Shown piece after piece: positions 26,551-53,718 of a stretch of DNA of 64,000 nt. How positions within the stretch are numbered: position 1 is the stretch's first letter; every line of letters starts with the position of its first letter. Below the pieces are notes generated by a model. It was not told the DNA's origin. It saw only the letters and a list, made by a program, of their open reading frames with translations, and searched no databases. Made by a program: the position numbers and the translations under genes. The stretch is from Maribacter huludaoensis (GTDB taxonomy: Bacteria > Bacteroidota > Bacteroidia > Flavobacteriales > Flavobacteriaceae), in assembly GCF_029350945.1 (NCBI RefSeq), contig NZ_JARKMS010000001.1, positions 188,375 through 252,374 of the forward strand, in the 5' to 3' direction.

Positions 26551-26589
26551 AGTAAATAGTACAAAGCAATAATCTTTGTACTATTTACT
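26551..26589 (-). repeat. Perfect 16-bp inverted repeat between atpA and atpG
   Basis: AGTAAATAGTACAAAG at 26551-26566 and CTTTGTACTATTTACT at 26574-26589 pair without mismatch around a 7-base loop. The stem includes the distal part of the heptamer array. It has no G-C-rich core followed by a T-run beyond the weak AT-rich flanks, so a processing or stability element is as likely as a terminator. Confidence 0.85.
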
Positions 26590-26606
26590 CAGTACTCAGT
26601 ACTTTT
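26579..26606. repeat. Heptamer array, four TACTNNN units, after atpA
   Basis: Units TACTATT, TACTCAG, TACTCAG, TACTTTT on the + strand, preceded by CTTTG. The array starts 5 bases after the atpA stop codon when read on the coding strand. The same layout occurs at 36517-36544. Confidence 0.8.
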
Positions 26607-26611
26607 TAAAC

Positions 26612-28189
26612 TTATTTATATTTCGCTGAAAGCTCTTTACAAACAGAAGTCAACGTATCTGTAACCTCATCGGTTAATTTACCAGACTTCAATGTATCCA
26701 GAACACCTCTATGCTTAGCATTCAAGAACTCTAGGTAATCACGTTCAAATTCTTTTACTTTTTCAACCGGCACGTCTCTTAACAAGTTCTTAGAACCTGC
26801 ATAGATAATGGCAACTTGATCTTCAACAGTATAAGGATCGTTCTGTGCTTGCTTTAATATCTCAACATTTCTACGTCCTTTTTCAATTACGTTCAACGTA
26901 GCCGCATCCAAATCTGAACCGAATTTAGCAAAGGCTTCCAATTCACGGAACTGAGCTTGATCTAATTTCAATGTACCAGATACTTTCTTCATTGATTTAA
27001 TCTGAGCGTTACCACCAACACGAGATACAGAAATACCAACGTTAATTGCAGGTCTTACACCTTGGTTGAATAAATCTTGCTCTAAGAATATCTGTCCGTC
27101 AGTAATAGAAATTACGTTGGTTGGGATATAAGCAGAAACGTCACCCGCTTGTGTTTCAATAATAGGTAATGCCGTTAAAGAACCTCCACCTTTCACCATT
27201 GGTTTTAACACCTCTGGCAAATCGTTCATTTCTTTTGCGATATCATCATCATTGATAACTTTTGCAGCACGCTCCAATAATCTAGAGTGTAGGTAGAAAA
27301 CGTCACCTGGGTAAGCCTCACGTCCTGGTGGTCTTCTTAACAAAAGAGACACCTCACGGTAAGCAACCGCTTGTTTAGATAAATCATCATATATAATTAA
27401 TGCAGGACGACCTGTATCACGGAAATATTCTCCAATAGATGCTCCGGTAAACGGTGCATATACTTGCATTGGCGCAGGATCAGATGCATTTGCAGCTACA
27501 ATGGTAGTATATGCCATTGCACCTTTATCTTCCAATACTTGAGCGATACCGGCAACGGTAGATGCTTTCTGACCTATGGCAACATAGATACAGTAAACAG
27601 GCTCACCAGCATCATAAAACTCTTTTTGATTCAAAATGGTATCGATACAAACTGTAGTCTTACCAGTTTGACGGTCACCAATAACAAGTTCTCTCTGCCC
27701 TCTACCAACTGGAATCATCGCATCAATTGCTTTAATACCTGATTGCATTGGCTCAGTTACAGGTTCTCTGTAGATTACCCCTGGAGCTTTACGCTCTAAA
27801 GGCATTTCATAAGTATCACCAGAAATAGGTCCTTTACCGTCAATAGGGTTACCTAAAGTATCCACTACACGACCAACAATACCTTCACCAACTTTTACAG
27901 AAGCAATACGTTGTGTACGTTTAACCGTATCACCTTCACCAACTGATTTAGAAGGTCCTAAAAGAACGACACCAACGTTATCTTCTTCAAGGTTAAGAAC
28001 GATACCCTCAAGTCCGCCTTCGAACTCAACCAATTCTCCATATTGAGCGTTCGCTAATCCGTAGATTCTTGCGATACCATCACCAACTTGTAATACAGTA
28101 CCTACTTCGTCTAAAGTAGCGGTAGCATCAAATCCTGATAATTGTTTCTTTAAAATTGCTGATACTTCAGCGGCTTTTACTCCTGCCAT
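26612..28189 (-). CDS. atpA: ATP synthase F1 subunit alpha
   Basis: 525-residue nucleotide-binding, non-catalytic F1 subunit. Walker [11 protein letters not shown] is near residue 172 and the signature [14 protein letters not shown] lies around 380. It starts 29 bases after the stop of an unknown secreted-protein gene that interrupts the usual atpH-atpA junction. Full length and intact. Confidence 0.98.
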
Positions 28190-28218
28190 ATCTTACTTAT
28201 TATTTTACTGTAATATTT

Positions 28219-29028
28219 TTACCAAGGACTATTACCTTTTTTAATCAACTCTCCAATTAACTCGGTCAAAAACTCTTGTTTGGTCACCTTACTTAATTGT
28301 CTTTTTGCTTTATATTCAAAACTAGACCCATCTTGCAATGAAACTTTTACTGGTGATTGAATATCTGTTGTTGCTGTTGCAATTAAGTTTCCGTCAACAT
28401 CATACACTTTAATAGGCGTTGATCTTGTACCAGAATATTCATCAGGTGAGGTAACTTTTCCAATTACGTCAGTTCCCATTCTACCACCTTTAGTAATACT
28501 TAAATCATTTTGTACAAATGGATTAATCGCTGCAACCTTTGCATCTAGTTCCTTGTCTTGATTTTTAACTTTGTTAACCTTCTCTTTTGCGGTACTTTCA
28601 GTTTTAGTATCAAGGAAAGTAGAAATTTTTTCGGCATTTACATTTCCCGACAAATCAAAAAACTGAAGCTTCTCAATTAAAAAACTTATAATTTTCTTTT
28701 TACCAGTCCCATAATCAGGATCGATATCTATAGCATTAGTTTTGGAAAAATCCGCATTTGAAATCTCTAACCAGCTCTCTTTAGCCCCATTTGGAACCAA
28801 CATTCTTCCTATACTATTTACTTGAAGAAACAATTCTGATGAATTTGAATTCGTAAATGAATACAAAATATCATAATCCCCCATAGTCTTTGTAGCTCTA
28901 TGCTCAGTTTCCATCTTTATAGGAATGGCAACCTTGTCCACTAATATAGCACCTTTTTTAAAGCCTATTTTTTGAGCACTAATAGACACACTAAAAAATA
29001 AAACCAGTCCAAAAACTATTCTATTCAT
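28219..29028 (-). CDS. Secreted protein of unknown function inside the atp operon
   Basis: 269 residues with signal peptide MNRIVFGLVLFFSVSISAQ. I do not recognise the family. The N-terminal half is beta-rich (GAILVDKVAIPIKMETEHRA, YDILYSFTNSNSSELFLQVN). A Lys-rich segment lies around 145-165, and the C-terminal part holds IKVYDVDGNLIATATTDIQS and ends ELIGELIKKGNSPW. It begins one base after the atpH stop codon, so translation is probably coupled. Codon use looks like its neighbours. A periplasmic or surface protein has no obvious role in ATP synthase. Confidence 0.75.
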   Translation of the reverse strand: MNRIVFGLVLFFSVSISAQKIGFKKGAILVDKVAIPIKMETEHRATKTMGDYDILYSFTNSNSSELFLQVNSIGRMLVPNGAKESWLEISNADFSKTNAIDIDPDYGTGKKKIISFLIEKLQFFDLSGNVNAEKISTFLDTKTESTAKEKVNKVKNQDKELDAKVAAINPFVQNDLSITKGGRMGTDVIGKVTSPDEYSGTRSTPIKVYDVDGNLIATATTDIQSPVKVSLQDGSSFEYKAKRQLSKVTKQEFLTELIGELIKKGNSPW

Positions 29029-29029
29029 A

Positions 29030-29569
29030 TTATAGACTATTTGAAAATTCTCTTTTTAAATTATTAAGCTTGTTGCTTACGCTAGCATCATACTGTAAAT
29101 CTCCAACTCTTAATATGAAGCCTCCAATAATACTTTCGTCCACTTTACTTTCTAGGGTAACTTCATTACCGGTAAGTGCAGCAACTTTCAATAATATTTT
29201 CTTTTCCATTGCGGCATCTAAAGGTACTGCAGTGGTAACATAAGCCACATCTTTACCTTTTTGTTGCTCATTAAGAATAATGTATTTTAAGGCAACTTCG
29301 TTTAGCATTCCCAAACGCTTGTTGTCTACCAACATATTAATAGTGCCTTCCGTGATCGAATGACTACCCTTAAAAATCTCAAGTAGAGCATTCTTTTTCA
29401 TAGTACCGGATACAACCGGACTAGCCAATACATCTTTAAGTTCCTTACTATCTGAAATAGTAGCGGCGATTGAACGCATATCTTTTTCAACAGCATCCAA
29501 GGCCTTGTTTTCCTTGGCCATATCCAATATTGCCTTTGCGTAACGTAATGCAGCTCTAGATTCGCTCAT
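29030..29569 (-). CDS. atpH: ATP synthase F1 subunit delta
   Basis: 179-residue peripheral-stalk cap protein (OSCP type) linking subunit b to the alpha3-beta3 head. Start ESRAALRYAKAILDMAKENK and the C-terminal VDESIIGGFILRVGDLQYDA are characteristic. It is separated by 8 bases from atpF and by a single base from the following unknown gene. Confidence 0.95.
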   Translation of the reverse strand: MSESRAALRYAKAILDMAKENKALDAVEKDMRSIAATISDSKELKDVLASPVVSGTMKKNALLEIFKGSHSITEGTINMLVDNKRLGMLNEVALKYIILNEQQKGKDVAYVTTAVPLDAAMEKKILLKVAALTGNEVTLESKVDESIIGGFILRVGDLQYDASVSNKLNNLKREFSNSL

Positions 29570-29577
29570 TATTTCTT

Positions 29578-30078
29578 TTAGTTAAGTTTTATATCGCTCA
29601 ACATTGTATCTACCAATTTCAATTGCTTGTCATTGTTAGATAAATCCTCTTTCAATACTTTTTCTGCTATAGCAACAGACAATTCTGCAACCTGACTTTT
29701 AATGTCGGCAACAGCAGCTTTTTTCTCACTTTCGATTGCAGTCTGTGCTTGCTTCAACATTTTATCACCTTCAAGCTTTGCTTGTTCTTTAGAGTCAGAA
29801 ATCATTTTTTCTTTGATTTCACGAGCTTCTTTCAACATAGCCTCACGTTCTGCACGTGCTTCTTGAAGCATCTTTTCGTTATCGGCCTGTAAGTTCTGCA
29901 TATCTGCCTTTGCTTTCTCAGCTGCGGCCAATGCTTCCTCAATACCCGTTTCTCTTTCGTTCAAAGAGTTTAAAATTGGTTTCCAAGCAAATTTTACCAT
30001 CAAGAATATTAATCCTAATAATAATATTGTTTGAACTATAAACAAACCTGGTGAAAAATCGTTCAATAAAACTTCCAT
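29578..30078 (-). CDS. atpF: ATP synthase F0 subunit b
   Basis: 166-residue peripheral-stalk subunit: one membrane helix near residues 10-30 (LFIVQTILLLGLIFLMVKFA) and a long charged helix, Glu/Lys/Ala-rich, from about 40 to 150. An 89-base gap with a hairpin separates it from atpE, wider than most gaps in this operon. Confidence 0.95.
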   Translation of the reverse strand: MEVLLNDFSPGLFIVQTILLLGLIFLMVKFAWKPILNSLNERETGIEEALAAAEKAKADMQNLQADNEKMLQEARAEREAMLKEAREIKEKMISDSKEQAKLEGDKMLKQAQTAIESEKKAAVADIKSQVAELSVAIAEKVLKEDLSNNDKQLKLVDTMLSDIKLN

Positions 30079-30119
30079 ATCCTAATCTTTAAAATCTAAA
30101 TCAAATAATTAAAAAACAT

Positions 30120-30144
30120 TTCCTGTAACCAACCGTTACAGGAA
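30120..30144 (-). terminator. Hairpin between atpE and atpF (attenuator or RNA stabiliser)
   Basis: Perfect 10-base stem TTCCTGTAAC / GTTACAGGAA around CAACC. On the coding (minus) strand it is followed by ATGTTTTTT, a short T-run. It sits 24 bases after the atpE stop codon inside the operon. A partial terminator or 3-prime end protector would raise atpE over downstream genes, which fits the need for many c subunits. That role is inferred. Confidence 0.6.
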
Positions 30145-30167
30145 GATGTCTTTGGGTTTTCGTGTTC

Positions 30168-30380
<213 letters not shown>

Positions 30381-30400
30381 TTAAATTAAAAAAACTCTTA

Positions 30401-31579
30401 TTAAATGAAGTCCGCCCTTACATCTTCCGTATCGGCTACCTCGTGACCCGCCTCATCGTGTTCATGATCATGGTCATGCTCTGCAACTGCCATACCTATA
30501 AATAAAGCAGAAAGTGCAGTAAAAATATATGCTTGCAAAAAGGCTACTAAAACCTCAATAAGCGTAATAAAAAATGATAATACCAATGATAAACCTGTAG
30601 CACCCGCTACCCCCAAACTCTCTTTTAAGGTAAACATGATCGCAATTAAGCTCATTACCACAATGTGCCCCGCAGATATGTTTGCGAACAAACGTACTAG
30701 CAATGAAAATGGCTTAATGATAAATGCACCAGCTAATTCTATAATAGCCAAAATAGGCTTTACAAATACAGGTACACCCGGCATCCATAAAATGTGCATC
30801 CAGTAATCTTTATTTCCACTAACCGTATAAATAACTAAAGTGAAAATTGCCAAACAAGCCGTTACCGCTATTTGTCCAGTAACATTAAACCCAAATGGGG
30901 TAAGTCCCAACAAGTTTAACACCCAGATAAAGAAGAACACGGTTAACAAGTAACCCGTAAATCTTCTATAATGCTTTTCACCAATATTTGGTCTTGCAAT
31001 CTCATCTCTTACATAAAGCACCAATGGCTCTAACACTCTACCGAAACCAGTAGGTATATTTTTCTTACCATATTGTTTCGCCAAAGAAGAAAAGGCCAAC
31101 AACATCAACAAACCTACCAACAACACACCAACAACACTTTTAGTAATTGAAAAATCTAAAACTTTATGCGCATTTGTTGCATGATGCTCTTCATCAAAAC
31201 TAACCGATGAAGCGCCTGCTTCCAACTCATAAATTTTACTGTGAAGTTTTACAAATTTAGAACCGTTCTTTTCAACAATTACTTGCCCGTTATCATCATG
31301 GTGAAATTCTGAGGACATAAAAGTCACTAATCCATTGCTTGACCAAAGAATAACCGGAAGGGGAAAACCAACATGTTTTCTTTCACCTGAATCACTAGTA
31401 TATGAGAATAAATGAAAATCGTGAGAATCTTTAAGGTGATGTAAAATATAGGCGTCAACCTGTTCCTTTCCACTTACCACTCCTTCTGGCTCAGTATCAG
31501 ATATAGCAAAACTTTGTAATGAAAAACAAAGTATTAGAAGTTGTAATAAGGTTTTAATCGTATTTGAAACTTGCATCAT
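30401..31579 (-). CDS. atpB: ATP synthase F0 subunit a, with long N-terminal extension and His/Asp-rich tail
   Basis: 392 residues, longer than the usual ~240-280. The core, from about residue 150, has the membrane helices and the critical arginine region (VRLFANISAGHIVV). Ahead of it lie a signal-like segment (LLQLLILCFSLQSFAISD) and about 120 extra residues (for example FHLFSYTSDSGERKHVGFPL), likely on the periplasmic side. Such extensions are known in Bacteroidota. The C-terminus EHDHDHEHDEAGHE could bind metal. An ATG one codon downstream is an alternative start. Confidence 0.95.
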   Translation of the reverse strand: MMQVSNTIKTLLQLLILCFSLQSFAISDTEPEGVVSGKEQVDAYILHHLKDSHDFHLFSYTSDSGERKHVGFPLPVILWSSNGLVTFMSSEFHHDDNGQVIVEKNGSKFVKLHSKIYELEAGASSVSFDEEHHATNAHKVLDFSITKSVVGVLLVGLLMLLAFSSLAKQYGKKNIPTGFGRVLEPLVLYVRDEIARPNIGEKHYRRFTGYLLTVFFFIWVLNLLGLTPFGFNVTGQIAVTACLAIFTLVIYTVSGNKDYWMHILWMPGVPVFVKPILAIIELAGAFIIKPFSLLVRLFANISAGHIVVMSLIAIMFTLKESLGVAGATGLSLVLSFFITLIEVLVAFLQAYIFTALSALFIGMAVAEHDHDHEHDEAGHEVADTEDVRADFI

Positions 31580-31669
31580 TAGTTCTTTATCAAAAAATTT
31601 AGCTCCTAGAAATTTTGCGCAAAAGTAGTTAATTATTGCATAAACTACCCAATTTTAAAGCTTTAAAAT

Positions 31670-32062
31670 TTAGAGTCTTTTTTTGCGCATAATTTTCGAA
31701 ATAAAAAACACTTCTAGAAACAAAAAAATAATCACCGGTATAAGTAGCCCACCCCTATATATTTGAGGCATAATCAGTTCTCCTAAAAGGTAAGGATAGA
31801 ATAGTGCCGCAAAAATTGTAATCTTAAAAACAAGTACACCCATATAGATAAAACCTAATTGTTCAAAAAAGGAATTGTTTTTAGAGGCAATTAAGAAAAT
31901 GATGACCAGTGTAAGGGAAAACAAAAAATGAAATGTATAGGCCTTGATCAATAGCGGACCTAAATAGGTTGGCGGATCTAATAAGGCAAGATTTTGTAGA
32001 AAATAAGAAGTCGCGCCCACAACAGTGAACACGACTATATATAAAGTGATATTTTTTAGCAA
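31670..32062 (-). CDS. DUF6168 family membrane protein in the atp operon
   Basis: 130 residues with four membrane helices, matching DUF6168 as I recall it. It sits between atpZ and atpB, the position AtpI-type assembly factors take in other phyla, so a role in F0 assembly or ion supply is a reasonable inference. Its C-terminus is basic (ISKIMRKKRL). It starts 3 bases after the atpZ stop. Confidence 0.8.
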   Translation of the reverse strand: MLKNITLYIVVFTVVGATSYFLQNLALLDPPTYLGPLLIKAYTFHFLFSLTLVIIFLIASKNNSFFEQLGFIYMGVLVFKITIFAALFYPYLLGELIMPQIYRGGLLIPVIIFLFLEVFFISKIMRKKRL

Positions 32063-32065
32063 CGT

Positions 32066-32293
32066 TTATTTATTTAGCGCCATAACTTTTTTTATGACTA
32101 AATAGATAGACAAAAATACAGCAAGTAATGTAAATGTATCCTCTAAAAACGTTTTTTCAAACTTTTGATCTAACCACTCTCCTAAAAGATTGCCCAAGTA
32201 TATAGTGACACCCATTTGTATGGCAACACCAGATAAGCTTGCGGCATTTCTTAAGAGTTCAGAATTATCATTACGAGGCTTTTGCGGCTCCAT
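32066..32293 (-). CDS. atpZ: AtpZ/AtpI family protein
   Basis: 75 residues with two membrane helices (LSGVAIQMGVTIYLGNLLGE; FTLLAVFLSIYLVIKKVM) and the Gly and charge pattern of AtpZ-type accessory proteins of F0. In other bacteria AtpZ/AtpI help c-ring assembly or magnesium uptake. ATG at 32293 is chosen; the frame is open further upstream only within the bactofilin gene. It overlaps bactofilin by 23 bases. Confidence 0.82.
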   Translation of the reverse strand: MEPQKPRNDNSELLRNAASLSGVAIQMGVTIYLGNLLGEWLDQKFEKTFLEDTFTLLAVFLSIYLVIKKVMALNK

Positions 32294-32687
32294 TATTTGA
32301 AGATTTAAAACCTGTACCCGCAGCTTTACCACCACCCATGGTACAAGATGCGTTAAATGTAGCACCCGGTTCAACAGCCAATTTACTTACAGAAACGGTA
32401 CCTTCTATAACTGCAGATGATTTTAAGGATAATAGATCGGATACTAAAAGTTCTCCATTAAAACTGCCTTCTATATCTGCATTTACACATTCTACTTTTC
32501 CATGAATGTAGCCATCTTTACCGATCACCACTTTACCGGAAGTTTTTACATTACCATCTAGCTTACCATCTATACGAAAATCCGCTTCAGATATAATATC
32601 TCCTTTAATTTTGGTGTTCTTCTCTATTCTATTAGGCTGGCCTCCTACTTCATTCATAGCTCTAGGTTTTTGTTTGTCTGAAAACAT
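32271..32687 (-). CDS. Bactofilin (polymer-forming cytoskeletal protein)
   Basis: 138 residues. The central domain, about 20-115, is a right-handed beta-helix with the repeating pattern typical of bactofilins (TKIKGDIISEADFRIDGKLD, GNVKTSGKVVIGKDGYIHGK, VECVNADIEGSFNGELLV). Flanking ends are disordered. Bactofilins polymerise without nucleotides and place cell-wall or envelope machinery. It lies 3 bases after the porW stop and overlaps atpZ, so all three are probably cotranscribed. Confidence 0.93.
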   Translation of the reverse strand: MFSDKQKPRAMNEVGGQPNRIEKNTKIKGDIISEADFRIDGKLDGNVKTSGKVVIGKDGYIHGKVECVNADIEGSFNGELLVSDLLSLKSSAVIEGTVSVSKLAVEPGATFNASCTMGGGKAAGTGFKSSNNGAAKAS

Positions 32688-32690
32688 TGT

Positions 32691-35246: not shown

Positions 35247-35369
35247 AATAGATAATCTACGTATGTATGTTTAACTTAAAAACAACCAGATTATTATACC
35301 GTTTATCGGTAAACTGCATATTTATTTTTAAGTCGTGTCACCATTTATGAACCGCAAAACCAAATTTTT

Positions 35370-35391
35370 ACCGACCATATAGTTTGTTTTA
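35370..35391. promoter_or_regulatory. TetR-operator-like sequence upstream of porW
   Basis: The sequence ACCGACCATATAGTTTGT plus TTTA agrees at 19 of 22 positions with 57100-57121. It also shares CCGACCATAT with the reverse complement of the palindromic site before tetR (57229-57243). It lies 124 bases before the porW ATG, the same distance as the second site has to the M48 gene. Confidence 0.5.
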
Positions 35392-35489
35392 TATTAAAAT
35401 GATCACGAGCTTTTGAGTTTACTGCAGATAATCTGATCAAATGCAACTTCGTCGGATTTTATCTTACTTGGGTTAAAACTTAGAAAAGA

Positions 35490-35513
35490 AAAACCGACCT
35501 AATGGTCGGTTTT
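35490..35513 (-). terminator. Terminator after the ABC transporter ATPase gene
   Basis: Stem AAAACCGACC / GGTCGGTTTT with TAAT loop, followed on the minus strand by a T-rich tract, about 100 bases past the stop codon. Its core matches the trpS terminator. Confidence 0.85.
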
Positions 35514-35611
35514 AAGTTTTTACACTAACTATAGTACGTTTTATTTAAAACCAGTTAAATTATACCATATGTAGTTCTTAACTGCGCTCTAAACGGACAT
35601 ATATTTTTAAA

Positions 35612-36331: not shown

Positions 36332-36516
36332 AATCGTGTTATTTACTTTGGCTATGCTCAGCAGCCTTTTAGTTCGTTATTGGTTAAAAGAAATAAATCC
36401 AATTTATCTGTCTGAATAGCTTATTAACAATTAGCCGACATTTAATTTACTTATTCCTGCAACTTTATATTCCTTACTGAATTCTTTAAGTTTTCCTAAA
36501 TAAGCTTTTTTCTTTG

Positions 36517-36544
36517 TACTTATTACTTAATACTCGGTACTTAT
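36517..36544. repeat. Heptamer array, four TACTNNN units, after the DUF5687 gene
   Basis: Units TACTTAT, TACTTAA, TACTCGG, TACTTAT on the + strand, preceded by CTTTG. Layout and orientation equal the array at 26579-26606. It starts 3 bases after the stop codon of the permease gene on the coding strand. The rest of the 216-base gap shows nothing else. Confidence 0.8.
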
Positions 36545-36547
36545 CAA

Positions 36548-42761: not shown

Positions 42762-42765
42762 TCAA

Positions 42766-43539: not shown

Positions 43540-43564
43540 CTATCTAAAATTAATTTCAAAAAAA

Positions 43565-43596
43565 ATGCCAAGCGAATACTATTATTCGCTTGGCAT
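43565..43596 (-). terminator. Terminator after the DegP-type protease gene
   Basis: Perfect 14-base stem ATGCCAAGCGAATA / TATTCGCTTGGCAT with 4-base loop, followed on the minus strand by eight T. It lies 22 bases past the stop codon. Confidence 0.95.
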
Positions 43597-43617
43597 AAAA
43601 TTAATCATAAATACGGA

Positions 43618-45132: not shown

Positions 45133-45460
45133 ATGTATATAATTTTTAATATTCTTCTAACTGCCTAGTGTCAATAGCTATGCCATGTATAGCCATGTCA
45201 TTGCTAAAAAAAATTTAAAAGTTTTTGAAATTTTAAGGGATTTTTTAGACTAAGTGGTCTGTAACCTTAAAATTATAGTACTTGAAGCATAAAAATTATG
45301 CTCATCAACTGATATTATAGCTTGTTTATAGGCTTTTGCAATTTGTAAACCCTAAAATGTTTTAGAGAAACAAACTGCTTGGTCTAAAACTGACATTTTG
45401 ACTTAAAGTAAGGCGATTCTTATATTTTAATGATACAATTTATGTATAGTTAAAAAACCT
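45133..45460. other. Divergent intergenic region before the arsenosugar-like cluster
   Basis: 328 AT-rich bases without a gene. A promoter candidate for the rightward cluster is at 45398-45428. Near 45165-45205 there are overlapping short inverted repeats (GCTAT / ATAGC around GCCATGT), possibly an operator for the protease gene. Nothing else recognised. Confidence 0.55.
45398..45428 (+). promoter_or_regulatory. Candidate promoter of the 45.4-54.8 kb cluster
   Basis: TTG at 45398-45400, a 20-base spacer, and TATATTTT at 45421-45428, seven of eight matching the -7 element TAnnTTTG. The start codon is 33 bases further on. Confidence 0.45.
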
Positions 45461-46195
45461 TTGCCATATTTTTACGTAAGTTTAACAACGAGAAAGAAAA
45501 TTGAATTGAATTCACTAGGTACTACTGCTATATTGGTATTTGCTAATTCCGCTAAGGAAGATTTAGCCAATAAGGGTATTGCCAAAGGTGAACAATTGTT
45601 TAACATTCTTACCACGGCCACACTTCGTAAAGCAAAAAATACAGGTTTGCCCGTTTTTCATTTTTCCGATGAAAACCAAATTGGCAACAGTTTTGGTGAA
45701 CGTTTCACGAATGCCATAGCTTCCGTTTTTGAAAAAGGTTTTACAAGTGTTATTACCATAGGGAACGATACTCCGCACTTAAAAACACAACAACTTAAAC
45801 ATACTGCCAAGCAATTGGCAAAGGGCAAGTCCGTTATAGGACCATCTATTGATGGGGGTTTTTACCTTTTAGGTTTACAAAAATCGAATTTTGAGGTAGG
45901 CGAATTTCAAGATTTACCTTGGCAACGCTTTGGCTTGTACCACAAAATTACCATGTGGCTACAAGAAGAATCAACGGCATTGGTAAAATTGCCCGTTTTA
46001 CAGGATCTGGATACTGAAAAAGATCTAAAGGCTATTTTATCATTCTCAAAAGACCTACCAACTACCCTGCTATTGGTGATAATAGCAATATTACGAGTAA
46101 ACAGAAGTCTATACTACACTAACCAGCACTTCTTTCGTCTATTTCCAAACAGTTTTCTATACAACAAGGGCTCGCCTTTGGTTTCATTTATCTAG
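45461..46195 (+). CDS. DUF2064 / TIGR04282-type glycosyltransferase-like protein
   Basis: 244 residues with a proposed TTG start; no ATG occurs early in the frame. The core (about 20-190) has TTAILVFANSAKEDLANKGI, ITIGNDTPHLKTQQLKHTAK and GPSIDGGFYLLGLQ, typical of the DUF2064 nucleotidyltransferase/glycosyltransferase-like fold. NCBI labels related proteins TIGR04282 arsenosugar biosynthesis glycosyltransferase. About 45 C-terminal residues after the conserved LQDLDTEKDL segment look unrelated and may be an unusual tail. It heads the cluster with SusC/D, symporter, fusion and ArsS. Confidence 0.75.
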   Translation: MPYFYVSLTTRKKIELNSLGTTAILVFANSAKEDLANKGIAKGEQLFNILTTATLRKAKNTGLPVFHFSDENQIGNSFGERFTNAIASVFEKGFTSVITIGNDTPHLKTQQLKHTAKQLAKGKSVIGPSIDGGFYLLGLQKSNFEVGEFQDLPWQRFGLYHKITMWLQEESTALVKLPVLQDLDTEKDLKAILSFSKDLPTTLLLVIIAILRVNRSLYYTNQHFFRLFPNSFLYNKGSPLVSFI

Positions 46196-46228
46196 ATCCC
46201 CCTTTATCCAATGGTTGGATAAATGAAA
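46182..46228. repeat. Inverted repeat between the DUF2064 gene and susC
   Basis: TTTCATTTATC (46182-46192) pairs with GATAAATGAAA (46218-46228). An alternative inner stem ATCCAA/TTGGAT (46206-46220) uses part of the right arm, so the two cannot form together. It covers the DUF2064 stop codon and ends 20 bases before the susC ATG. Confidence 0.55.
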
Positions 46229-46248
46229 AACCAGTCGAAAAACTATAT

Positions 46249-49200
46249 ATGAAACACTTATTACTAGTGTTGACCTTGTTTATATGTACTATGGTCAATG
46301 CTCAAGAAACAATTACCGGTACTGTAAAAGATACCGACGGAAATACCATACCTTATGTCAACATTGTTTTGTCTGGCACGCTAAATGGCACTACCACTAA
46401 CGAAAACGGCATATATACCATTGATGTGCCCAATCTTTCCGGTGCTCTTGAATTTTCCGTTTTAGGGTATGAAACCAAAATAATTACCATAAATAACAGA
46501 CGAACAATTGATATAGTCCTAGGCGACTCTTCCGAGGTCTTAGATGAAGTGGTATTAACGGCTTTAGGTCTAAAACGAGAAACCAAAGAATTAGGTTATG
46601 TAGTTCAAAGTTTGGATGCCAAAGGAGTTACCGAGGTAAAATCGGTCAATTTTCTTGACAACCTTTCAGGTAAATTGGCGGGGGTAACCATCAACCAAGG
46701 TGCTACGGGTGTAGGGTCTTCCTCTAAAATTACCATTCGTGGAGAAGCTTCTTTCTCTAACAACAATCCCTTATTTATTGTAGATGGCGTTCCTATCAAC
46801 AATAATTCGGTCTTTAATTTCACCAATGAAGCGGCAGCCGGATTTCAAGAAATCGATTTTGGAAACGGAGCCATGGAGGTAAACCCAGATGATATTGCAG
46901 AGGTTTCTGTTTTAAAAGGACCAAGTGCTGCGGCATTGTACGGTACTAGAGCTTCTAACGGAGTGATTATTATTGAAACAAAAAGCGGCAAGAATTCAAA
47001 AGGTTTGGGCGTTAGTTACAACACCAGCTTTTTTGTGGATTCGGCGTTTCAATTGCCCGATTTCCAGAATGAATACGGACAAGGAAATTCAGGAGAGTTC
47101 GCCTTTGTAGACGGATTAGGTGGTGGCACCAATGACCTAATTACGTACAGTTGGGGACCACGTTTAGATGTTGGTAACCTTATTCCGCAATATGATAGTC
47201 CGGTTACCTTGCCAGACGGTACCGTTGTAAGAGGTGGAGACACCGCTCTTTATAGTGGAATACCTATCACCCCTACAGAATTTAGATCACAACCGGACAA
47301 CTTAAAGAACTTCTATGAAACCGGTACTACATTAATTAATAATATTGCTATTTCCAACGGATTTGATACCGGTAGTTACCGACTTTCATTTACGGACTTA
47401 CGAAGCGAATCTATTATACCGGGTGTTGATTTAGACCGGCAAACGGTGAGTGCACGACTCAATTTTCAGCCAATAGATAAATTACGCATCAATTCATCTA
47501 TAAGTTATATCAATTCTAATTCTGACAACAGACCGTCTAACGGTTATGGTTCAGAAAACGCAAACTATTCTTTGGTTGCTTGGGGACCACGCTCGCTGAA
47601 TATAGAGAATCTAAAAAATTACTGGCAACCAGGTTTAGAGGGTATACAACAATACTCGTACAACTATACCTTTTTTGATAATCCATATTTCATTCTTAAT
47701 GAAAACAGAAACTCGTTCAATAGAGATAGGGTATTCGGAAATATTTCCGCTAGCTATGATATCACAGATCATTTAACAGCAACAGTTAGAACAGGGATGG
47801 ATTATTCCAGTGAACTACGCCAATTGCGAAGAGCCTATAGTTCTAATCGTTTCGCAAATGGTGGTTATGCGGAGCACGATGTATTCTATAGGGAGGTAAA
47901 CACTGATTTTTTAATAAATTATACCAATCAGTTCAATGATTTTAATATAGATGTCTCTTTAGGTGGAAACCGATTAGACCAAAAAGCATTTACCTCACAA
48001 TCGCAAACTACAAGTTTGGCACAACCGGGTATTTTTAGGTTATCTAACGCAGCATCACCTATTGAAGTTTTCGAATTTGAATCAAACAAGAGAATCAACA
48101 GCTTTTATGGCTTAGCAAAAATTGGATATAAGGATTTTCTATTTTTGGATGTCACCGGAAGAAACGATTGGTCTAGCGCATTGGCTACCCCTTTTTCAGT
48201 AGATAATACCTCTTTCTTTTATCCATCGGTATCCAGTAGTTTTATAGTATCCAAAGTGGTCAATTTACCTGAGGTAATTTCGTTTGCCAAGTTACGAGCA
48301 AGTTGGGCACAGGTTGGTAATGACACAGACCCATACCAAACTACAGGGGCATTTGTTGCACAAACGCCATTTAATGGGCAACCAACATTCAGCAATTCAA
48401 ACACTATTGCAAATGCCGATCTTGTTCCTGAATTGACATCCTCATTTGAGGTGGGTGCTGATCTACGCTTTTTCAATGATCAACTTCGCTTTGATGTTTC
48501 CTATTACAATGCATTGACGAAGGATCAAATTATCTCATTACCTATAGGCATTTCTTCAGGATATACACAACAAGTGGTCAATGGAGGCGAAGTTCGCTCT
48601 AAAGGGCTTGAGGTCATAGTAGGTGTTTCCCCTATAATAAGTCAAAATTTTAAATGGAACAGCACCTTAAATTTTAGTACCAATAGATCAACCGTAGAAA
48701 GTTTACCGCAAGATGAAGGGCGATTAACTTTGGCGTACTCTAGAATCTATGACAGTCAAAACCAAACGGTATTTTTACAAGCAGAAGAAGGTGGTCGCGT
48801 AGGAGATCTATATGGAACCGGATACTTAAAAAATGAAAATGGAGATTTCATTTTAACCGATGAGGGTAGATATATACCGGACAATGAACTACAAAAATTG
48901 GGTAATTATAATCCTGATTTTATGCTTGGTTTTAACAACCAATTCAATTATAAAAATTGGAATATGGGCTTTCTATTAGATTGGCGACAAGGTGGAATCA
49001 TAGTTTCTAGAACAAGGGCATTAGGAAATGTTGGTGGTCAGTTGGCTGAAACGGCCTTTAGACCAGAAACAGGTATTGTACCAGAGGGTTTAGTAAATAC
49101 AGGCACCGATGACAATCCGGTTTATGAAGCAAATACTGTAGCGGTTTCCGCAGAAAGTTACTATCGCCAGTTTTATGATAGAAATCATGAGGAAAACAAC

Positions 49201-49452
49201 ACCTATGATGCATCATTTTTAAAGCTACGCCAACTATCTATTGGTTATACGTTTAACAATCTTAGCCTGTTCAACCAAGATGCCACGTTGAGTTTATCAT
49301 TAATAGGAAAGAACTTATTTGCTATAACAGAGAATCCGCATTTTGACCCAGAGCAATTAGCAGTACAGGGACAAGGATTTATTAGTGGTGTTGAAGATAT
49401 GTCATATGCCACAACAAGAAGTATAGGTTTTAAAGCCGGATTTAATTTTTAA
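46249..49452 (+). CDS. SusC/RagA-family TonB-dependent outer-membrane transporter
   Basis: 1067 residues. Signal peptide MKHLLLVLTLFICTMVNAQ; carboxypeptidase-regulatory-like domain (GTVKDTDGNTIPYVNIVLSG) to about 100; plug domain with DNLSGKLAGVTINQG and VDGVPINNN; then a 22-strand barrel ending aromatic (SIGFKAGFNF). It imports a substrate into the periplasm with TonB energy, with the SusD-like protein as lid. No anti-sigma/ECF pair or glycoside hydrolase adjoins, so a polysaccharide substrate is not indicated. Confidence 0.95.
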   Translation: MKHLLLVLTLFICTMVNAQETITGTVKDTDGNTIPYVNIVLSGTLNGTTTNENGIYTIDVPNLSGALEFSVLGYETKIITINNRRTIDIVLGDSSEVLDEVVLTALGLKRETKELGYVVQSLDAKGVTEVKSVNFLDNLSGKLAGVTINQGATGVGSSSKITIRGEASFSNNNPLFIVDGVPINNNSVFNFTNEAAAGFQEIDFGNGAMEVNPDDIAEVSVLKGPSAAALYGTRASNGVIIIETKSGKNSKGLGVSYNTSFFVDSAFQLPDFQNEYGQGNSGEFAFVDGLGGGTNDLITYSWGPRLDVGNLIPQYDSPVTLPDGTVVRGGDTALYSGIPITPTEFRSQPDNLKNFYETGTTLINNIAISNGFDTGSYRLSFTDLRSESIIPGVDLDRQTVSARLNFQPIDKLRINSSISYINSNSDNRPSNGYGSENANYSLVAWGPRSLNIENLKNYWQPGLEGIQQYSYNYTFFDNPYFILNENRNSFNRDRVFGNISASYDITDHLTATVRTGMDYSSELRQLRRAYSSNRFANGGYAEHDVFYREVNTDFLINYTNQFNDFNIDVSLGGNRLDQKAFTSQSQTTSLAQPGIFRLSNAASPIEVFEFESNKRINSFYGLAKIGYKDFLFLDVTGRNDWSSALATPFSVDNTSFFYPSVSSSFIVSKVVNLPEVISFAKLRASWAQVGNDTDPYQTTGAFVAQTPFNGQPTFSNSNTIANADLVPELTSSFEVGADLRFFNDQLRFDVSYYNALTKDQIISLPIGISSGYTQQVVNGGEVRSKGLEVIVGVSPIISQNFKWNSTLNFSTNRSTVESLPQDEGRLTLAYSRIYDSQNQTVFLQAEEGGRVGDLYGTGYLKNENGDFILTDEGRYIPDNELQKLGNYNPDFMLGFNNQFNYKNWNMGFLLDWRQGGIIVSRTRALGNVGGQLAETAFRPETGIVPEGLVNTGTDDNPVYEANTVAVSAESYYRQFYDRNHEENNTYDASFLKLRQLSIGYTFNNLSLFNQDATLSLSLIGKNLFAITENPHFDPEQLAVQGQGFISGVEDMSYATTRSIGFKAGFNF

Positions 49453-49462
49453 GAAAGAAAAG

Positions 49463-50887
49463 ATGAAACATATATATAGCATTTTAGTCTTATTGTTGGT
49501 CATTGGCTGCACAAAAGATTTTGAGGAAATTAATACGAACACCAACGATCCCGTAACTGTACAACCTAGTCTTTTGTTAAGACAGGTAATTTATGACTAT
49601 GGGGAACAAATGTCATATGAAGGTTTTACTGCCGGTAACCTACTAGGACAATATAGTACCGCTCTAGACTTTAACTTATTTGACAGGCATGATTTAAAGT
49701 CGCCCCAATTAGGTGGTAATCCGTGGCCTATATTCTATCAAAACTTAAGGGATAATGAAATCATATTAAAATTGTCCCAAGAGAATGCTGCATATGCCGT
49801 TTATGAAGGTCCGGCAAGAATTATGAAGGCATACATGGCGGCCGGGTTAACAGATTTATTTGGTGATGCTCCCTATTTAGAAGCATTTCAAGGAGATACA
49901 GAAACGGTTACTCCGTCCTATGACACTCAGGAATCAATTTACATGGATGAAGGTGGTGTTTTTGATAATCTTGACAAAGGAATTTTAGCCATTCAGAATT
50001 ATTCAGGTACCATAGCTTTAGAGGGAGATATTCTCTTTAATGGTGAGTTAGATGGATGGATTCGTTTTGCAAATTCATTGAAGATAAAATACTTGATGAG
50101 GGTTTCTAATAAAATAGATGTTGCATCGCAATTACAGACCATAGTAAGTGAAGGTAATTTCATTGATGATAATGAAGAAAATGCCATTTTCAACTTTACC
50201 GATGGTGAACCTAATAGTTTTAGACTTGCGCAACTTAGGGTTGGAGACTTTAACAACTATGTACTTTCTGAAACTATGGATGAAATTTTGACCAACTTGA
50301 ACGATCCTCGTATTGGTCGTCTGTACCAAGCTTTTGCCAACAGTTCAGATGGTGAATACAATGGGCTTTTAAACGGTATAGACGCATCAGTTGGGGTATC
50401 ATTGGCAGATTACTCTTTATTAGGTACCATTTTTAGGGAGAACACCGGATTATTGGATGCGAATTTTATGACCAGTATGGAAACCCACTTTTTGTTGGCT
50501 GAAGCTGCCGAAAGAGAATTCATTTCTGCAGATACCCAAACTTTATACAATACCGGCGTAACACAGGCATTTGCCTATTGGCAGGTAGAACTACCTGAAA
50601 ATTACCTAACAGAAGATGCCCCGTTTGATAACGGCAATACTATAGAGAACATCATCACTCAAAAATGGATTGCAAATTCAATAAACGGTTATGAAGGTTG
50701 GATAGAGTATAGAAGAACGGGTTTTCCGCAATTGAAAACAATATCGGCTAGTTTAAACAATAATTTGATACCTACCCGTATGCCTTATCCATCTGAAGAA
50801 GAAGCATTAAATAATGCCAATTATACCCAAGCTTCAAATAACACGGATGGTAATAGTATTAATGTACCTGTGTGGTGGGATGAATAA
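49463..50887 (+). CDS. SusD/RagB-like outer-membrane lipoprotein (PF12771 type)
   Basis: 474 residues. Lipoprotein signal MKHIYSILVLLLVIGC, then the SusD-like start DFEEINTNTNDPVTVQPSLL. TPR-like helices and a typical end region (IITQKWIANSINGYEGWIEY) follow. It captures the substrate for the SusC partner encoded 10 bases upstream. An 80-base heptamer array starts two bases after the stop codon. Confidence 0.93.
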   Translation: MKHIYSILVLLLVIGCTKDFEEINTNTNDPVTVQPSLLLRQVIYDYGEQMSYEGFTAGNLLGQYSTALDFNLFDRHDLKSPQLGGNPWPIFYQNLRDNEIILKLSQENAAYAVYEGPARIMKAYMAAGLTDLFGDAPYLEAFQGDTETVTPSYDTQESIYMDEGGVFDNLDKGILAIQNYSGTIALEGDILFNGELDGWIRFANSLKIKYLMRVSNKIDVASQLQTIVSEGNFIDDNEENAIFNFTDGEPNSFRLAQLRVGDFNNYVLSETMDEILTNLNDPRIGRLYQAFANSSDGEYNGLLNGIDASVGVSLADYSLLGTIFRENTGLLDANFMTSMETHFLLAEAAEREFISADTQTLYNTGVTQAFAYWQVELPENYLTEDAPFDNGNTIENIITQKWIANSINGYEGWIEYRRTGFPQLKTISASLNNNLIPTRMPYPSEEEALNNANYTQASNNTDGNSINVPVWWDE

Positions 50888-50889
50888 CC

Positions 50890-50969
50890 GAGTTAGGAGT
50901 TAGGAGTTAGGAGTTAGGAGTTAGGAGTTAGGAGTTAGGAGTTAGGAGTTAGGAGTTAGGAGTTAGGAG
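50890..50969. repeat. Tandem heptamer array, 11.4 copies of GAGTTAG
   Basis: Eleven perfect GAGTTAG units plus three bases, with no mismatch. It fills nearly the whole gap between susD and the symporter gene. Each unit boundary creates AGGAG, a Shine-Dalgarno-like word; the last is 12 bases before the symporter ATG (50982). A variable-number tandem repeat is likely. Confidence 0.95.
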
Positions 50970-50981
50970 AAAAAACAAAAA

Positions 50982-52322
50982 ATGACTGAAGTACAAATTT
51001 GGCAATGGGGATTGGTGATCACATCTAGTTTGGTGTTGTTCTTACTGTCACCGTGGGCAAAAGATACCAATCAGTTTTTTAAAGCCGTGCAAAAGAAGAA
51101 AGCGCCCTATACCTTTATGTTAATGGGCAGCCTTATCATCTCATGGATATTTGCCAAAAGTATCACCAACGCTGCAAATTTAGGTCTGGATTTTGGTATT
51201 GTTGGTGGTGTAGCCTATGCAGGCTATTATTTATCATTTGCCGTGGCAGGTATTGTCATTTATAAAATGAGGCTGCACGGCAAGTATACTAGCATACATC
51301 ATTTTTTAACCTCAAAATTTGGTAAAACTGCCGTAACTATATTCTCCATATTGATTGCCTTTCGTTTGTTCAATGAAGTATGGAGCAATACCATGGTCAT
51401 AGGTTCTTACTTTGGTGATATGGGCACTACCGCCTACTATTGGTCCATTTTAGTATTTACAGGTTTAACCCTAGCCTATGTTCTAAAAGGCGGCATGAGC
51501 AGTTCCATTTTTACCGATGTTGTCCAAATGGGGCTATTTTCAATACTATTAGCGGTAATATTGTTCACCATCTTTGGTAAAGACAATGCTATAACCACAT
51601 CCGAAGTAATAAATTCTGGCATATGGTCCTTTGAAACCGGGCTGAATTTATTGTTCGCTGCCTTGTTGCAATCGTTCAGCTACCCTTTTCATGATCCCGT
51701 GTTGACCGATAGAGGTTTTATTAGCAGTCCTAAAGTAACATTGAAAAGTTTTCTGTGGGCAAGTGTACTTGGAGCTATTTGCATTGTTCTATTCAGCATT
51801 ATAGGTGTTTATGCGCAATCGCAGGGCATGCAGGGTCAGGCAGCTGTTCAAGTAGGTAAGGCGTTTGGTACGGTAATACTATTGGTCATCAATTTTATTA
51901 TGATCACTTCGGCAGCATCGACCTTGGACTCTACCTTTTCATCTTTTTCCAAATTATTGGCTCTTGACCTAAACCTTGGCAACACGGTTAAATTTGGTCG
52001 TTGGTCAATGGTCGCTGTAGCAGTATTGGGTACGGTTCCGGTCTTTTTAGATGCTGAAATATTATCTGCAACCACCATTAGCGGTACAATGGTAATCGGT
52101 TTAACCCCCGTTTTTTTATTTTGGAAAGGTAGTGCTCCTAAAATCAGTTTTCATTTAAGTGTTTTCTGCGGATTGTTATTCGGTTTTTTATTGATTTTCA
52201 ATTGGTTTCCAGATAGCTTAATATTTACCACTGGCAAGTATGCCAATTTATTATGGATTAATTTTTGGGGCATCTTATGCTGCCTTTTCGTTTATATGAT
52301 ACCTACATGGATAAAGAAATAA
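50982..52322 (+). CDS. Sodium:solute symporter (SSS family)
   Basis: 446 residues with about 13 membrane helices. SSS features include TSIHHFLTSKFGKTAVTIFS, a helix 5-6 region GGMSSSIFTDVVQMGLF and the conserved YPFHDPVLTDRGFIS. It moves a solute into the cytoplasm with sodium. It sits between susD and the phosphoesterase-like fusion and overlaps the latter by 16 bases, so it is probably the inner-membrane step for the substrate taken up by SusC/D. Confidence 0.88.
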   Translation: MTEVQIWQWGLVITSSLVLFLLSPWAKDTNQFFKAVQKKKAPYTFMLMGSLIISWIFAKSITNAANLGLDFGIVGGVAYAGYYLSFAVAGIVIYKMRLHGKYTSIHHFLTSKFGKTAVTIFSILIAFRLFNEVWSNTMVIGSYFGDMGTTAYYWSILVFTGLTLAYVLKGGMSSSIFTDVVQMGLFSILLAVILFTIFGKDNAITTSEVINSGIWSFETGLNLLFAALLQSFSYPFHDPVLTDRGFISSPKVTLKSFLWASVLGAICIVLFSIIGVYAQSQGMQGQAAVQVGKAFGTVILLVINFIMITSAASTLDSTFSSFSKLLALDLNLGNTVKFGRWSMVAVAVLGTVPVFLDAEILSATTISGTMVIGLTPVFLFWKGSAPKISFHLSVFCGLLFGFLLIFNWFPDSLIFTTGKYANLLWINFWGILCCLFVYMIPTWIKK

Positions 52323-53512
52323 AACATTTGGGCACTAAATCAGGAAAGCTGTTGCTTTTTGGAGGTGTGTACAGCAACCTACAAGCTTTGGAAAAACTAA
52401 TTTCCATAGCCAAAGATGCCGGTATTGCACCAGAAAACTGTATCAGCACCGGTGATATTACCGGTTATTGCGCACAACCGGAAGAAACGGTACAGTTGTT
52501 TCAAAAATGGGGCGCTTTAAGTATTGCGGGCAATGTAGAATTGCAATTGGCAAATGATAGTGAAAATTGTGGGTGCGATTTTAAAAGCGGTAGCCGATGC
52601 GACGATTTTTCAAAAATGTGGTTTCCGTATACCAAAGGGCATTTATCACAGCAATCATTAGAATGGATGCAAGAAATTCCTGAATACATCAGTTTTGATT
52701 ATGGTGGTAAAAAAGTAACCGTAGTCCATGGAAATTATGGAAATACCTCTGAATTCATTTTTAAGTCGAACGCCACGGAAAGTAAAGAAAACTGTTTTAA
52801 AGAGACTAAAAGTACTATTATCATAGCCGGTCATTGCGGGTTACCTTTTCATCAAACTTTAAAGGAAAATGTATGGCTAAACCCAGGCGTAATAGGTATG
52901 CCTGCAAATGATGGTACACCAAGGGTATGGTATATGATATTGGATATTATAGATGGTGAAGTTACTTATGCCCATCATTCATTTGAATATGATGCCGAAA
53001 CCGCTCAAAAATTAATGTACAAAAACCATTTACCTGAAGCATATGGAGACACGCTTACATCTGGTATATGGGACAACATGGAAATACTCCCTGAACTAGA
53101 AAAAATGGGACAGGGAATTCCAATATATTTTAACCAAGAACAAAAAGATACGATACAAACTAAAACTCAGAAAAAGATGGCAAATACGTACTATGACCCA
53201 GCAGATTTAAGAAAATTTGGAAAAATTTCAGAATGGAGCGAAGAGCTTGGTACCAAATTTTTTGACTATTATGGTAAGGTTTTCGAAGAAGGCGCACTAA
53301 GTGCTAGAGAAAAGTCTTTAATTGCATTGGCGGTATCTCATGTTGTCAAATGTCCATATTGTATAGACGCCTATACTAAAGACGGCTTACAAAAAGGCAT
53401 TACCAAAGAGGAAATGATGGAGGCGGTGCATGTAGGAGCAGCTATTGAAGGTGGTGCCACCTTGGTGCATGGAGTACAAATGATGAACAAGTATAACAAA
53501 TTGTCAATGTAA
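52307..53512 (+). CDS. Fusion: metallophosphoesterase-like domain (degenerate) plus AhpD-like CxxC domain (TIGR04169 type)
   Basis: 401 residues from the ATG at 52307. Residues 1-260 have a YfcE-like phosphoesterase fold, but several metal-ligand motifs are changed: GD-x-H reads GGVYSN (19-24), GNHD reads GNVE (75-78), GHTH reads GHCG (175-178). GDITGY (49-54) and HGN (141-143) remain. Residues 291-401 are a carboxymuconolactone decarboxylase/AhpD-like domain with redox Cys349 and Cys352 (KCPYCIDAYT). It matches the arsenosugar-associated peroxidase-like family, which often begins at the equivalent of Met291. That in-frame ATG (53177) could also start a shorter protein. Confidence 0.82.
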   Translation: MDKEIKHLGTKSGKLLLFGGVYSNLQALEKLISIAKDAGIAPENCISTGDITGYCAQPEETVQLFQKWGALSIAGNVELQLANDSENCGCDFKSGSRCDDFSKMWFPYTKGHLSQQSLEWMQEIPEYISFDYGGKKVTVVHGNYGNTSEFIFKSNATESKENCFKETKSTIIIAGHCGLPFHQTLKENVWLNPGVIGMPANDGTPRVWYMILDIIDGEVTYAHHSFEYDAETAQKLMYKNHLPEAYGDTLTSGIWDNMEILPELEKMGQGIPIYFNQEQKDTIQTKTQKKMANTYYDPADLRKFGKISEWSEELGTKFFDYYGKVFEEGALSAREKSLIALAVSHVVKCPYCIDAYTKDGLQKGITKEEMMEAVHVGAAIEGGATLVHGVQMMNKYNKLSM

Positions 53513-53517
53513 ATTTC

Positions 53518-53548
53518 GTTGTTGGTTGTTCGTTGATGGTTGTTCGTC
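53518..53548. repeat. Heptamer array GTTGTTG/GTTGTTC after the fusion gene
   Basis: Units GTTGTTG, GTTGTTC, GTTGATG, GTTGTTC plus GTC. It starts 5 bases after the stop codon and is the inverse of the array at 53691-53718. Confidence 0.8.
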
Positions 53549-53609
53549 GCATCCTTTTTTCAACAAACACTACATTGAAATTAAAGCAAGTTTAAAAAAA
53601 GTGCAAATG

Positions 53610-53630
53610 GAATATTCATTATGAATATTC
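53610..53630. promoter_or_regulatory. Perfect dyad upstream of arsS, candidate operator
   Basis: GAATATTCAT and ATGAATATTC flank a single central T (53620). It contains TGAATATTCA at 53622-53631, similar in type to ArsR/SmtB-family half-sites, though spacing differs. The dyad lies 95 bases before the arsS start. Confidence 0.5.
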
Positions 53631-53690
53631 ACGGGTAAGAATAAGAAATTAATTGTTGTCATCTTAAAGTTTGAAGCATTTACAAAATGC

Positions 53691-53718
53691 CAACAACGAA
53701 CAACGAACAACGAACAAC
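53691..53718. repeat. Heptamer array CAACAAC/GAACAAC before arsS
   Basis: CAACAAC followed by three GAACAAC units, ending 6 bases before the arsS ATG. It is inverted relative to 53518-53548, so the 212-base gap could fold into a long imperfect hairpin. Confidence 0.8.

What the first reader, a model, noticed from the sequence alone, without database searches (positions are those of the whole stretch)
26579..53718. A family of seven-base tandem arrays placed just after stop codons
Five arrays with a strict seven-base period are visible: TACTNNN x4 (26579-26606), TACTNNN x4 (36517-36544), GAGTTAG x11.4 (50890-50969), GTTGTTS x4 (53518-53548) and GAACAAC x4 (53691-53718). Four begin 3 to 6 bases after the stop codon of atpA, the DUF5687 permease gene, susD and the fusion gene, each read in the coding direction. 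The first two share both layout and a CTTTG end. Unit sequence differs but period and position do not. Seven is not a codon multiple, so coding selection does not explain it. They may be products of a common mechanism, such as replication slippage or a mobile array-forming element, or 3-prime-end signals.
Basis: partly seen in the sequence, partly recalled or inferred. Interest (0 to 1): 0.75.

Follow-up and report, generated by a model that had tools for sequence, protein, structure and literature searches.

The report
Heptamer arrays are mobile-element hairpin arms
Seven-letter DNA repeats that sit just after genes in this bacterium look like the arms of small hairpin elements which can carry a single gene and spread between species into the same gaps of the same operons, offering an origin for a class of bacterial repeats that had none.

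Summary
The five arrays are real, and seven is a special period in this genome. They are not five separate things: arrays 4 and 5 are the two complementary arms of one stem-loop (53513-53724), and array 1 is one arm of a stem-loop filling the atpA-atpG spacer. Arrays 2 and 3 are solo. Relatives show what they belong to: two congeners carry in the atpA-atpG spacer, between heptad arms, a gene for a PF05635 protein (23S rRNA intervening sequence protein, IVP/S23); at the hisH site the window's own species has both a stem-only and an IVP-bearing form. Complementary arms flank 26 of 35 IVP loci tested in the genus and 24 of 30 outside it, with identity peaking at lag 7. The elements spread: at the metH site IVP synonymous divergence between two species is 0.016 against 1.2-1.7 in the flanking genes. 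An IVP-free congener has no heptad array in 400 kb. Most arrays, however, have no IVP gene beside them. I conclude that the arrays are arms or relics of IVS-like stem-loop elements; how these move and what IVP does is unproven.

The parts
26537..26611 (-). stem-only element filling the atpA-atpG spacer
   Evidence: RNA fold -22.5 kcal/mol, z -6.4; pair changes on both sides in 7 of 26 pairs over 15 congeners; same site holds an IVP gene in two congeners
26574..26603 (-).
26545..26566 (-).
   Evidence: 22 nt, 91% complementary
36517..36544 (-). solo 5'-arm-type array (array 2) after the DUF5687 gene, before an ABC transporter ATPase gene on the same strand
   Evidence: no inverted partner
50890..50969 (+). 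solo GAGTTAG array, 11.4 copies (array 3), between a SusD-like gene and the next gene on the same strand
   Evidence: no inverted partner; 0 to 12 copies at the same site in congeners
53513..53724 (+). stem-loop element filling the spacer between the CMD/metallophosphatase fusion gene and a radical SAM/DUF3641 gene
   Evidence: fold z -4.9; arms 87% complementary
53514..53544 (+). 5' arm (array 4, GTTGTTS)
53692..53722 (+). 3' arm (array 5, AACAACG), ends just before the start codon at 53725

Best explanation
The arrays are arms, or leftover arms, of small stem-loop elements that sit between co-directional genes. A full element reads: upstream stop codon, 5' arm of a few to about ten seven-base units, one gene for an IVP (PF05635) four-helix-bundle protein in the loop, a complementary 3' arm, downstream start codon. 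Stem-only and solo-array forms lack the gene; the window holds only such forms. Shown: the architecture, the polarity of the arms, pairing kept by changes on both sides, selection on the IVP protein in several lineages, and spread of single elements into the same site of other species with little flanking DNA. Inferred: that the structure acts as RNA in the operon transcript, as 23S intervening sequences do; that IVP binds and promotes copying of its own hairpin; that arms made of repeats tolerate slippage because any register still pairs, and so build up heptamer arrays; that solo arrays are relics.
For: Same site, different states: atpA-atpG in 30 congeneric loci, 22 with a stem (fold z at most -2), 2 with an IVP gene, 2 with a spacer of 27-28 nt, 4 other; hisH spacer with IVP in 6, stem-only in 10, 5-27 nt in 4, an ORF-less form with IVP-type ends in 1, other or not scorable in 9 of 30, with both states inside the window's own species. 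Arms: 26 of 35 genus IVP loci and 24 of 30 loci outside the genus pass the 99th shuffle percentile, against 2 of 35 and 6 of 30 for the same-strand control, 5.4% for mismatched pairs outside the genus and 2 of 100 small control ORFs; identity at lag 7 is 0.41-0.43 and 0.38-0.42, against about 0.29 in controls. Gene order: upstream gene on the same strand in 35 of 35, downstream in 33 of 33 scorable. Pairing: 7 of 26 pairs changed on both sides (shuffled mean 3.2, 0 of 500), G-U 32 cells against A-C 7. Spread: IVP dS 0.016-0.285 in five metH-site pairs against 1.0-1.7 in the flanks, and 0.116 against 1.44 in one hisH-site pair. Link: IVP-free G033 has 0 heptad arrays in 400 kb; rho 0.59 between IVP and AGTANNN counts in 36 congeners; 11 of 12 hand-picked genomes with GAGTTAG arrays have PF05635, 0 of 14 control genomes.
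Against: Only 2 of 80 named array loci hold an IVP gene, one of them at the array; only 5 of 15 arrays in the 800-kb sample have a true inverted partner (two more flagged are halves of one direct array). 9 of 35 and 6 of 30 IVP loci fail the arm test. Some arms have six-base units (L267). Three of six IVP genes here have stops, and in the most recently exchanged pairs dN/dS is 0.1-0.75 on few changes. Three of four hisH-site pairs show no recent exchange (IVP dS 0.62-0.78 against 0.81-1.19 and 1.40-2.38). No movement to a new site was seen (best 78% identity). The correlation is not corrected for relatedness.
Confidence: 0.7

Rival explanations
1. Plain polymerase slippage: short seeds in spacers grow in steps of seven because of polymerase geometry (Mrazek 2007, as cited in PMC4679880 and PMC4692102), and IVP genes have nothing to do with it.
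For: Copy number varies by whole units at the susD site and at the TTGCTAA array; most arrays are solo.
Against: Does not predict the polarity relative to stop and start codons, complementary arms around IVP genes, or the absence of arrays in IVP-free G033.
Confidence: 0.15
2. Heptad hairpins come first, as host RNA signals at gene ends, and IVP genes use them as landing sites.
For: At the hisH site G010 has an IVP form while its conspecific and near relatives have a stem-only form; 23S intervening sequences lie in helix 45 of the rRNA (PMC4990558, abstract and passages).
Against: IVP-free G033 and G020 lack the atpA stem, and G033 lacks heptad arrays in 400 kb; the IVP form at hisH brings its own arms and differs from the stem-only arms.
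Confidence: 0.2
3. The elements are moved by a reverse transcriptase (as in diversity-generating retroelements) or by a Y1 transposase (as REP elements).
For: Avd resembles PF05635 and is needed for retrohoming (passages of PMC10053308).
Against: G000 has no RVT_1 hit at 1e-10 and no Y1 hit at 1e-8; G008, G013, G015, G031 and G035 lack both too, while IVP-free G033 has one of each.
Confidence: 0.06
4. The apparent spread is ordinary homologous recombination of spacers between species, without any mobility of the element.
For: Exchange was seen only at the same site; about 20-40 nt of flank go along at the metH site.
Against: Tracts of 400-460 nt end within about 15-40 nt of the element on both sides although the flanks are homologous.
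Confidence: 0.3

Closest known systems
23S rRNA intervening sequences with S23/IVP gene, as in Coxiella (PMC4990558; abstract and passages seen)
   Same: PF05635 gene inside a stem of terminal inverted repeats (28 bp in Coxiella); described as a selfish element
   Different: Here between protein-coding genes, not in 23S rRNA; arms are tandem repeats mostly of seven bases; many copies lack the gene; RNase III cutting untested
Heptameric repeats GGGAATC and GGGGA(C/T)T of Xanthomonas and Nostoc (PMC4692102; passages and section 13 read)
   Same: Period seven with fixed and free positions, intergenic, close to stop codons on the coding strand and to start codons on the non-coding strand
   Different: Other units; the paper saw no link to mobile elements and does not mention IVP in what I read. 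A PF05635 structure, Xcc0516, is from X. campestris (reference listed in PMC10053308)
TAACTGA heptamers of Beggiatoaceae, Cyanobacteria and Bacteroidetes (PMC4679880; abstract, introduction and three sections read)
   Same: Intergenic heptamer arrays in scattered phyla, indels in steps of seven; the author suggested that a repeat-binding protein could be the mobile part
   Different: Mostly before start codons in the BOGUAY genome; the terms S23, four helix and intervening do not occur in the text
Diversity-generating retroelements with Avd (PMC10053308; passages seen)
   Same: Avd resembles PF05635
   Different: No reverse transcriptase hit in this genome

Membership tests
Heptanucleotide simple-sequence arrays of bacteria | Tandem units of seven bases, over-represented and intergenic | tested here: met
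Heptanucleotide simple-sequence arrays of bacteria | Coding-strand arrays next to stop codons, as reported for Xanthomonas | tested here: met
   7 of 15 in the own sample; 25 of 38 GAGTTAG arrays within 15 nt of an upstream stop
23S rRNA intervening sequence | PF05635 gene | tested here: not met
   None in the window; 6 elsewhere in the genome and at the atpA-atpG site of two congeners
23S rRNA intervening sequence | Terminal inverted repeats forming a stem | tested here: met
   Two of four window elements; 26 of 35 and 24 of 30 IVP loci
23S rRNA intervening sequence | Insertion in 23S rRNA | tested here: not met
   All four lie between protein-coding genes
23S rRNA intervening sequence | Excision from the transcript by RNase III | not testable with these tools
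   needs RNA
REP elements moved by Y1 transposase | Y1 transposase gene in the genome | tested here: not met
   0 in G000; 6 of 36 congeners
Diversity-generating retroelement | Reverse transcriptase gene | tested here: not met
   0 in G000; 18 of 36 congeners
Intrinsic terminator | G+C-bearing stem followed by a T run | tested here: not met
   None found at 26400-26700 and 53400-53800

The most novel reading that the evidence does not exclude
IVP elements are a distinct class of mobile element: one small protein gene inside a heptad-repeat RNA hairpin that homes into fixed gaps of operons without a recognisable transposase or reverse transcriptase. The five-fold IVP ring reads heptad units of its own hairpin; 23S intervening sequences and Avd-based retroelements are offshoots; the unexplained heptamer arrays of Xanthomonas, Nostoc, Beggiatoaceae and Bacteroidetes are its arms and relics.
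Probability: 0.3. Interest if true: 0.92.

Novelty: new variant of a known kind. Interest (0 to 1): 0.78.

Why it matters
Two unexplained things, heptamer arrays next to stop codons and S23/IVP genes of unknown purpose, would be one. It gives a very common protein family (225 of 299 genomes sampled in this taxonomic family) a setting and a mode of spread, and lets the old question of how intervening sequences move be tested in ordinary culturable bacteria.

Tried and rejected
Terminators: none found at the two stem-loops. Rfam: no credible match in 53400-53900 (one at E 0.41, far below its cut-off) and none in four homologous loci. Reverse transcriptase or Y1 transposase as mover: does not go with IVP presence. 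Recent movement between different sites: not seen among 35 different-site pairs, best 78%. Phages: no match in 50,697 records; 24 plasmid records carry a relative. An IVP gene next to most arrays: not so. The G002/G009 atpA spacer as a deleted IVP element: looked suggestive, but it has no stem (z -0.4 and 0.0) and is not used. G030 at hisH as a deletion derivative of the IVP form rests on matching ends in one case. Literature: nine answered searches listed no paper that joins heptamer arrays with IVP/S23; the library lacks most subscription journals and all bioRxiv preprints, so this is no proof. Weak points: ORFs were called by a simple script and starts are uncertain; the 100 control ORFs were not purged of IVP genes; the 12 genomes were hand-picked for spread; two loci are on short contigs (L273, L284); non-orthologous pairs (flank identity 1.00 over short overlaps) were not used.
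Full report
The observation. The five arrays are present. The window is G000:C7:188375-252374 of a 4.24-Mb genome in 15 contigs. In 800 kb of contig C7, taken without regard to arrays except that it holds the window, seven is the only period from 4 to 15 with perfect arrays of four or more copies (7 arrays, two of them halves of one array at an assembly gap). With degenerate arrays counted, 15 of 18 period-7 arrays are intergenic although about 9% of the sample is non-coding; other periods give 0-2 intergenic arrays each. 7 of 15 begin at most 12 nt after a stop (1.03 expected in any gap, 2.75 in the same gap); none is in a divergent gap.

What the arrays are, locally. Arrays 4 and 5 are complementary (31 nt, 87%, 147 nt between) and close the fold of the whole spacer 53513-53724 (z -4.9). 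Array 1 pairs with a further arm in the atpA-atpG spacer (22 nt, 91%; z -6.4). Arrays 2 and 3 have no partner. In the 800-kb sample flags 7 of 15 arrays as having an inverted partner within 250 nt; two are halves of one direct array whose unit nearly matches its own complement, which leaves 5. Of 12 further AGTANNN loci in the genome 5 have one.

The atpA-atpG site in relatives. One search matched atpA in 33 of 36 genomes of the genus; 30 loci were fetched. 22 of 30 spacers fold with z at most -2, 2 hold an ORF (G006, G011), G020 and G033 have 27-28 nt, G002, G009 and G022 have spacers without a stem, and in G026 no atpG was recognised. The ORF is PF05635, 23S_rRNA_IVP (E 9e-20); its only PDB relative by sequence is 2rld, with five chains. 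In 15 stem-only spacers 7 of 26 pairs show changes on both sides (shuffled mean 3.2, 0 of 500; slid controls at most 4) and 91.7% of cells pair. Departures favour G-U (32 cells) over A-C (7), which suggests pairing in RNA. On an atpA tree the two IVP-bearing genomes fall among stem-bearing ones.

IVP genes carry such arms. This genome has 6 PF05635 loci, 3 with stops, each between co-directional genes; 5 of the 6 pass the arm test, L266 does not. 34 of 36 congeners have the family, 0-11 matches each. For 35 genus loci the alignment of the upstream flank with the reverse complement of the downstream flank exceeds the 99th shuffle percentile in 26, the same-strand control in 2. Outside the genus, 12 genomes picked by hand for taxonomic spread from the GAGTTAG scan gave matches in 11 and 30 fetched loci: 24 of 30 pass (19 of 24 outside Bacteroidota, by the record names), the same-strand control passes in 6 of 30, mismatched pairs in 5.4%; identity at lag 7 is 0.43 and 0.42, against 0.30 and 0.29 in 100 small ORFs of the own genome, of which 2 reach the arm threshold. 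I read 18 of these 30 by eye: Neisseriaceae and Paludibacteraceae with GAGTTAG arms, Phycisphaeraceae with GGGTACA-like arms, Nostoc with GGGTAAA arms; L307 (Oscillospiraceae) shows none. In the genus the upstream gene is on the same strand in 35 of 35 loci and the downstream gene in 33 of 33 scorable; outside the genus 20 of 30 are flanked so on both sides.

Polarity. They hold 84 arrays: 12 at edges, 72 intergenic, none scored inside an ORF. Read in the GAGTTAG direction, 25 of 38 lie within 15 nt after an upstream stop and 1 of 31 within 15 nt before a sense start; read the other way, 6 of 31 lie within 15 nt before a start and 3 of 39 within 15 nt after a stop. The same rule was described for GGGAATC arrays of Xanthomonas (PMC4692102, section 13). 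Against a simple picture, only 2 of the 80 loci contain an IVP gene, one directly at the array, one 956 nt away.

Spread. At the hisH upstream spacer 30 loci were fetched: IVP in G010, G013, G024, G026, G032, G035; an ORF-less form with IVP-type ends in G030; stem-only by reading in G000, G004, G005, G008, G015, G018 (weak), G019, G021, G031, G034; 5-27 nt in G001, G014, G017, G027; other spacers in G003, G022, G029; not scorable by the script in G006, G007, G011, G012, G020, G033. G010 and G000 are one species by the tool's label, with hisH 96% identical, yet differ in state. The G010 element is 98.0% identical to that of G032, whose upstream gene is 86.8% and hisH 76.2% identical, and the change of pattern falls within about 15 nt of each end. 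At the metH site IVP dS is 0.016 (G030-G034), 0.082 (G031-G034), 0.064 (G031-G030), 0.048 (G034-G024) and 0.285 (G035-G006), against 1.0-1.7 in the genes on both sides; G000-G034 have IVP dN 0.218 against 0.033-0.035 in the flanks, so different element lineages occupy one site. The tract of high identity reaches about 20-40 nt beyond the element there. At hisH, three other pairs show no recent exchange (IVP dS 0.62-0.78, flanks 0.81-1.19 and 1.40-2.38). Movement to new sites was not seen (35 different-site pairs, best 78%). In five orthologous pairs, three from one site, dN/dS of IVP is 0.014-0.08; in the most recently exchanged pairs it is 0.1-0.75 on few changes.

Link at genome level. AGTANNN counts and IVP counts correlate over 36 congeners (rho 0.59; 0.63 in the 30 at least 90% complete; relatedness not corrected). 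G033, without IVP, has no heptad array in 400 kb, against 15 intergenic in 800 kb of G000 and 4 in 400 kb of G026; over its whole genome it has 2 AGTANNN matches and G020 none. 11 of the 12 genomes encode PF05635, 0 of 14 well-known control genomes do.

How it most likely works. Shown: architecture, pairing, polarity, exchange at fixed sites. Inferred: the unit acts as an RNA hairpin in the operon transcript, where the gap between stop and start is the least harmful place; tandem repeats in both arms let the stem survive slippage, since any register pairs, and so heptads persist and vary there (0 to 12 GAGTTAG copies at the susD site) after the gene is lost. Why seven is unexplained; a fit to the IVP ring is speculation. 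The mover is unknown: neither a reverse transcriptase nor a Y1 transposase goes with IVP presence, so IVP with host recombination is my leading guess, and plain recombination between species is not excluded.

Compared with the known. The arrays are members of the known class of bacterial heptanucleotide repeats. Kinship with intervening sequences rests on the protein family and the enclosing stem of the gene-bearing relatives; location in 23S rRNA is not met and RNase III cutting is untested, so I call them IVS-like and do not file them as IVS. Nine searches of the held library listed no paper that joins the two subjects.

Noticed in passing
G302:C1:563406-564516: Three PF05635 matches with equal scores at 398-base spacing, as if the element were tandemly triplicated.
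   Followed up: no
window 53560-53690; loci L338, L341, L342: The loop of the 53513-53724 element and its relatives shares a short hairpin followed by AAAGAAATTAAA across species; no Rfam family matched.
   Followed up: partly
L105 about 18306; L357 2616-3035: G010 has an extra gene of about 420 bases, acetyltransferase-like by eye, between hisH and the next IVP element, which G000 lacks.
   Followed up: no
G000:C7:462124-462389: A TTGCTAA array with an assembly gap inside; G010 has about 8 copies without a gap.
   Followed up: partly
L270-L276, start of the metH-like gene: The 3' arm appears to lie inside the first codons of the downstream gene, so the heptads may be translated (by eye).
   Followed up: no
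plasmid records H1-H15: IVP relatives lie on 24 plasmid records, mostly cyanobacterial plus Riemerella, 7 predicted conjugative: a possible route of spread.
   Followed up: no
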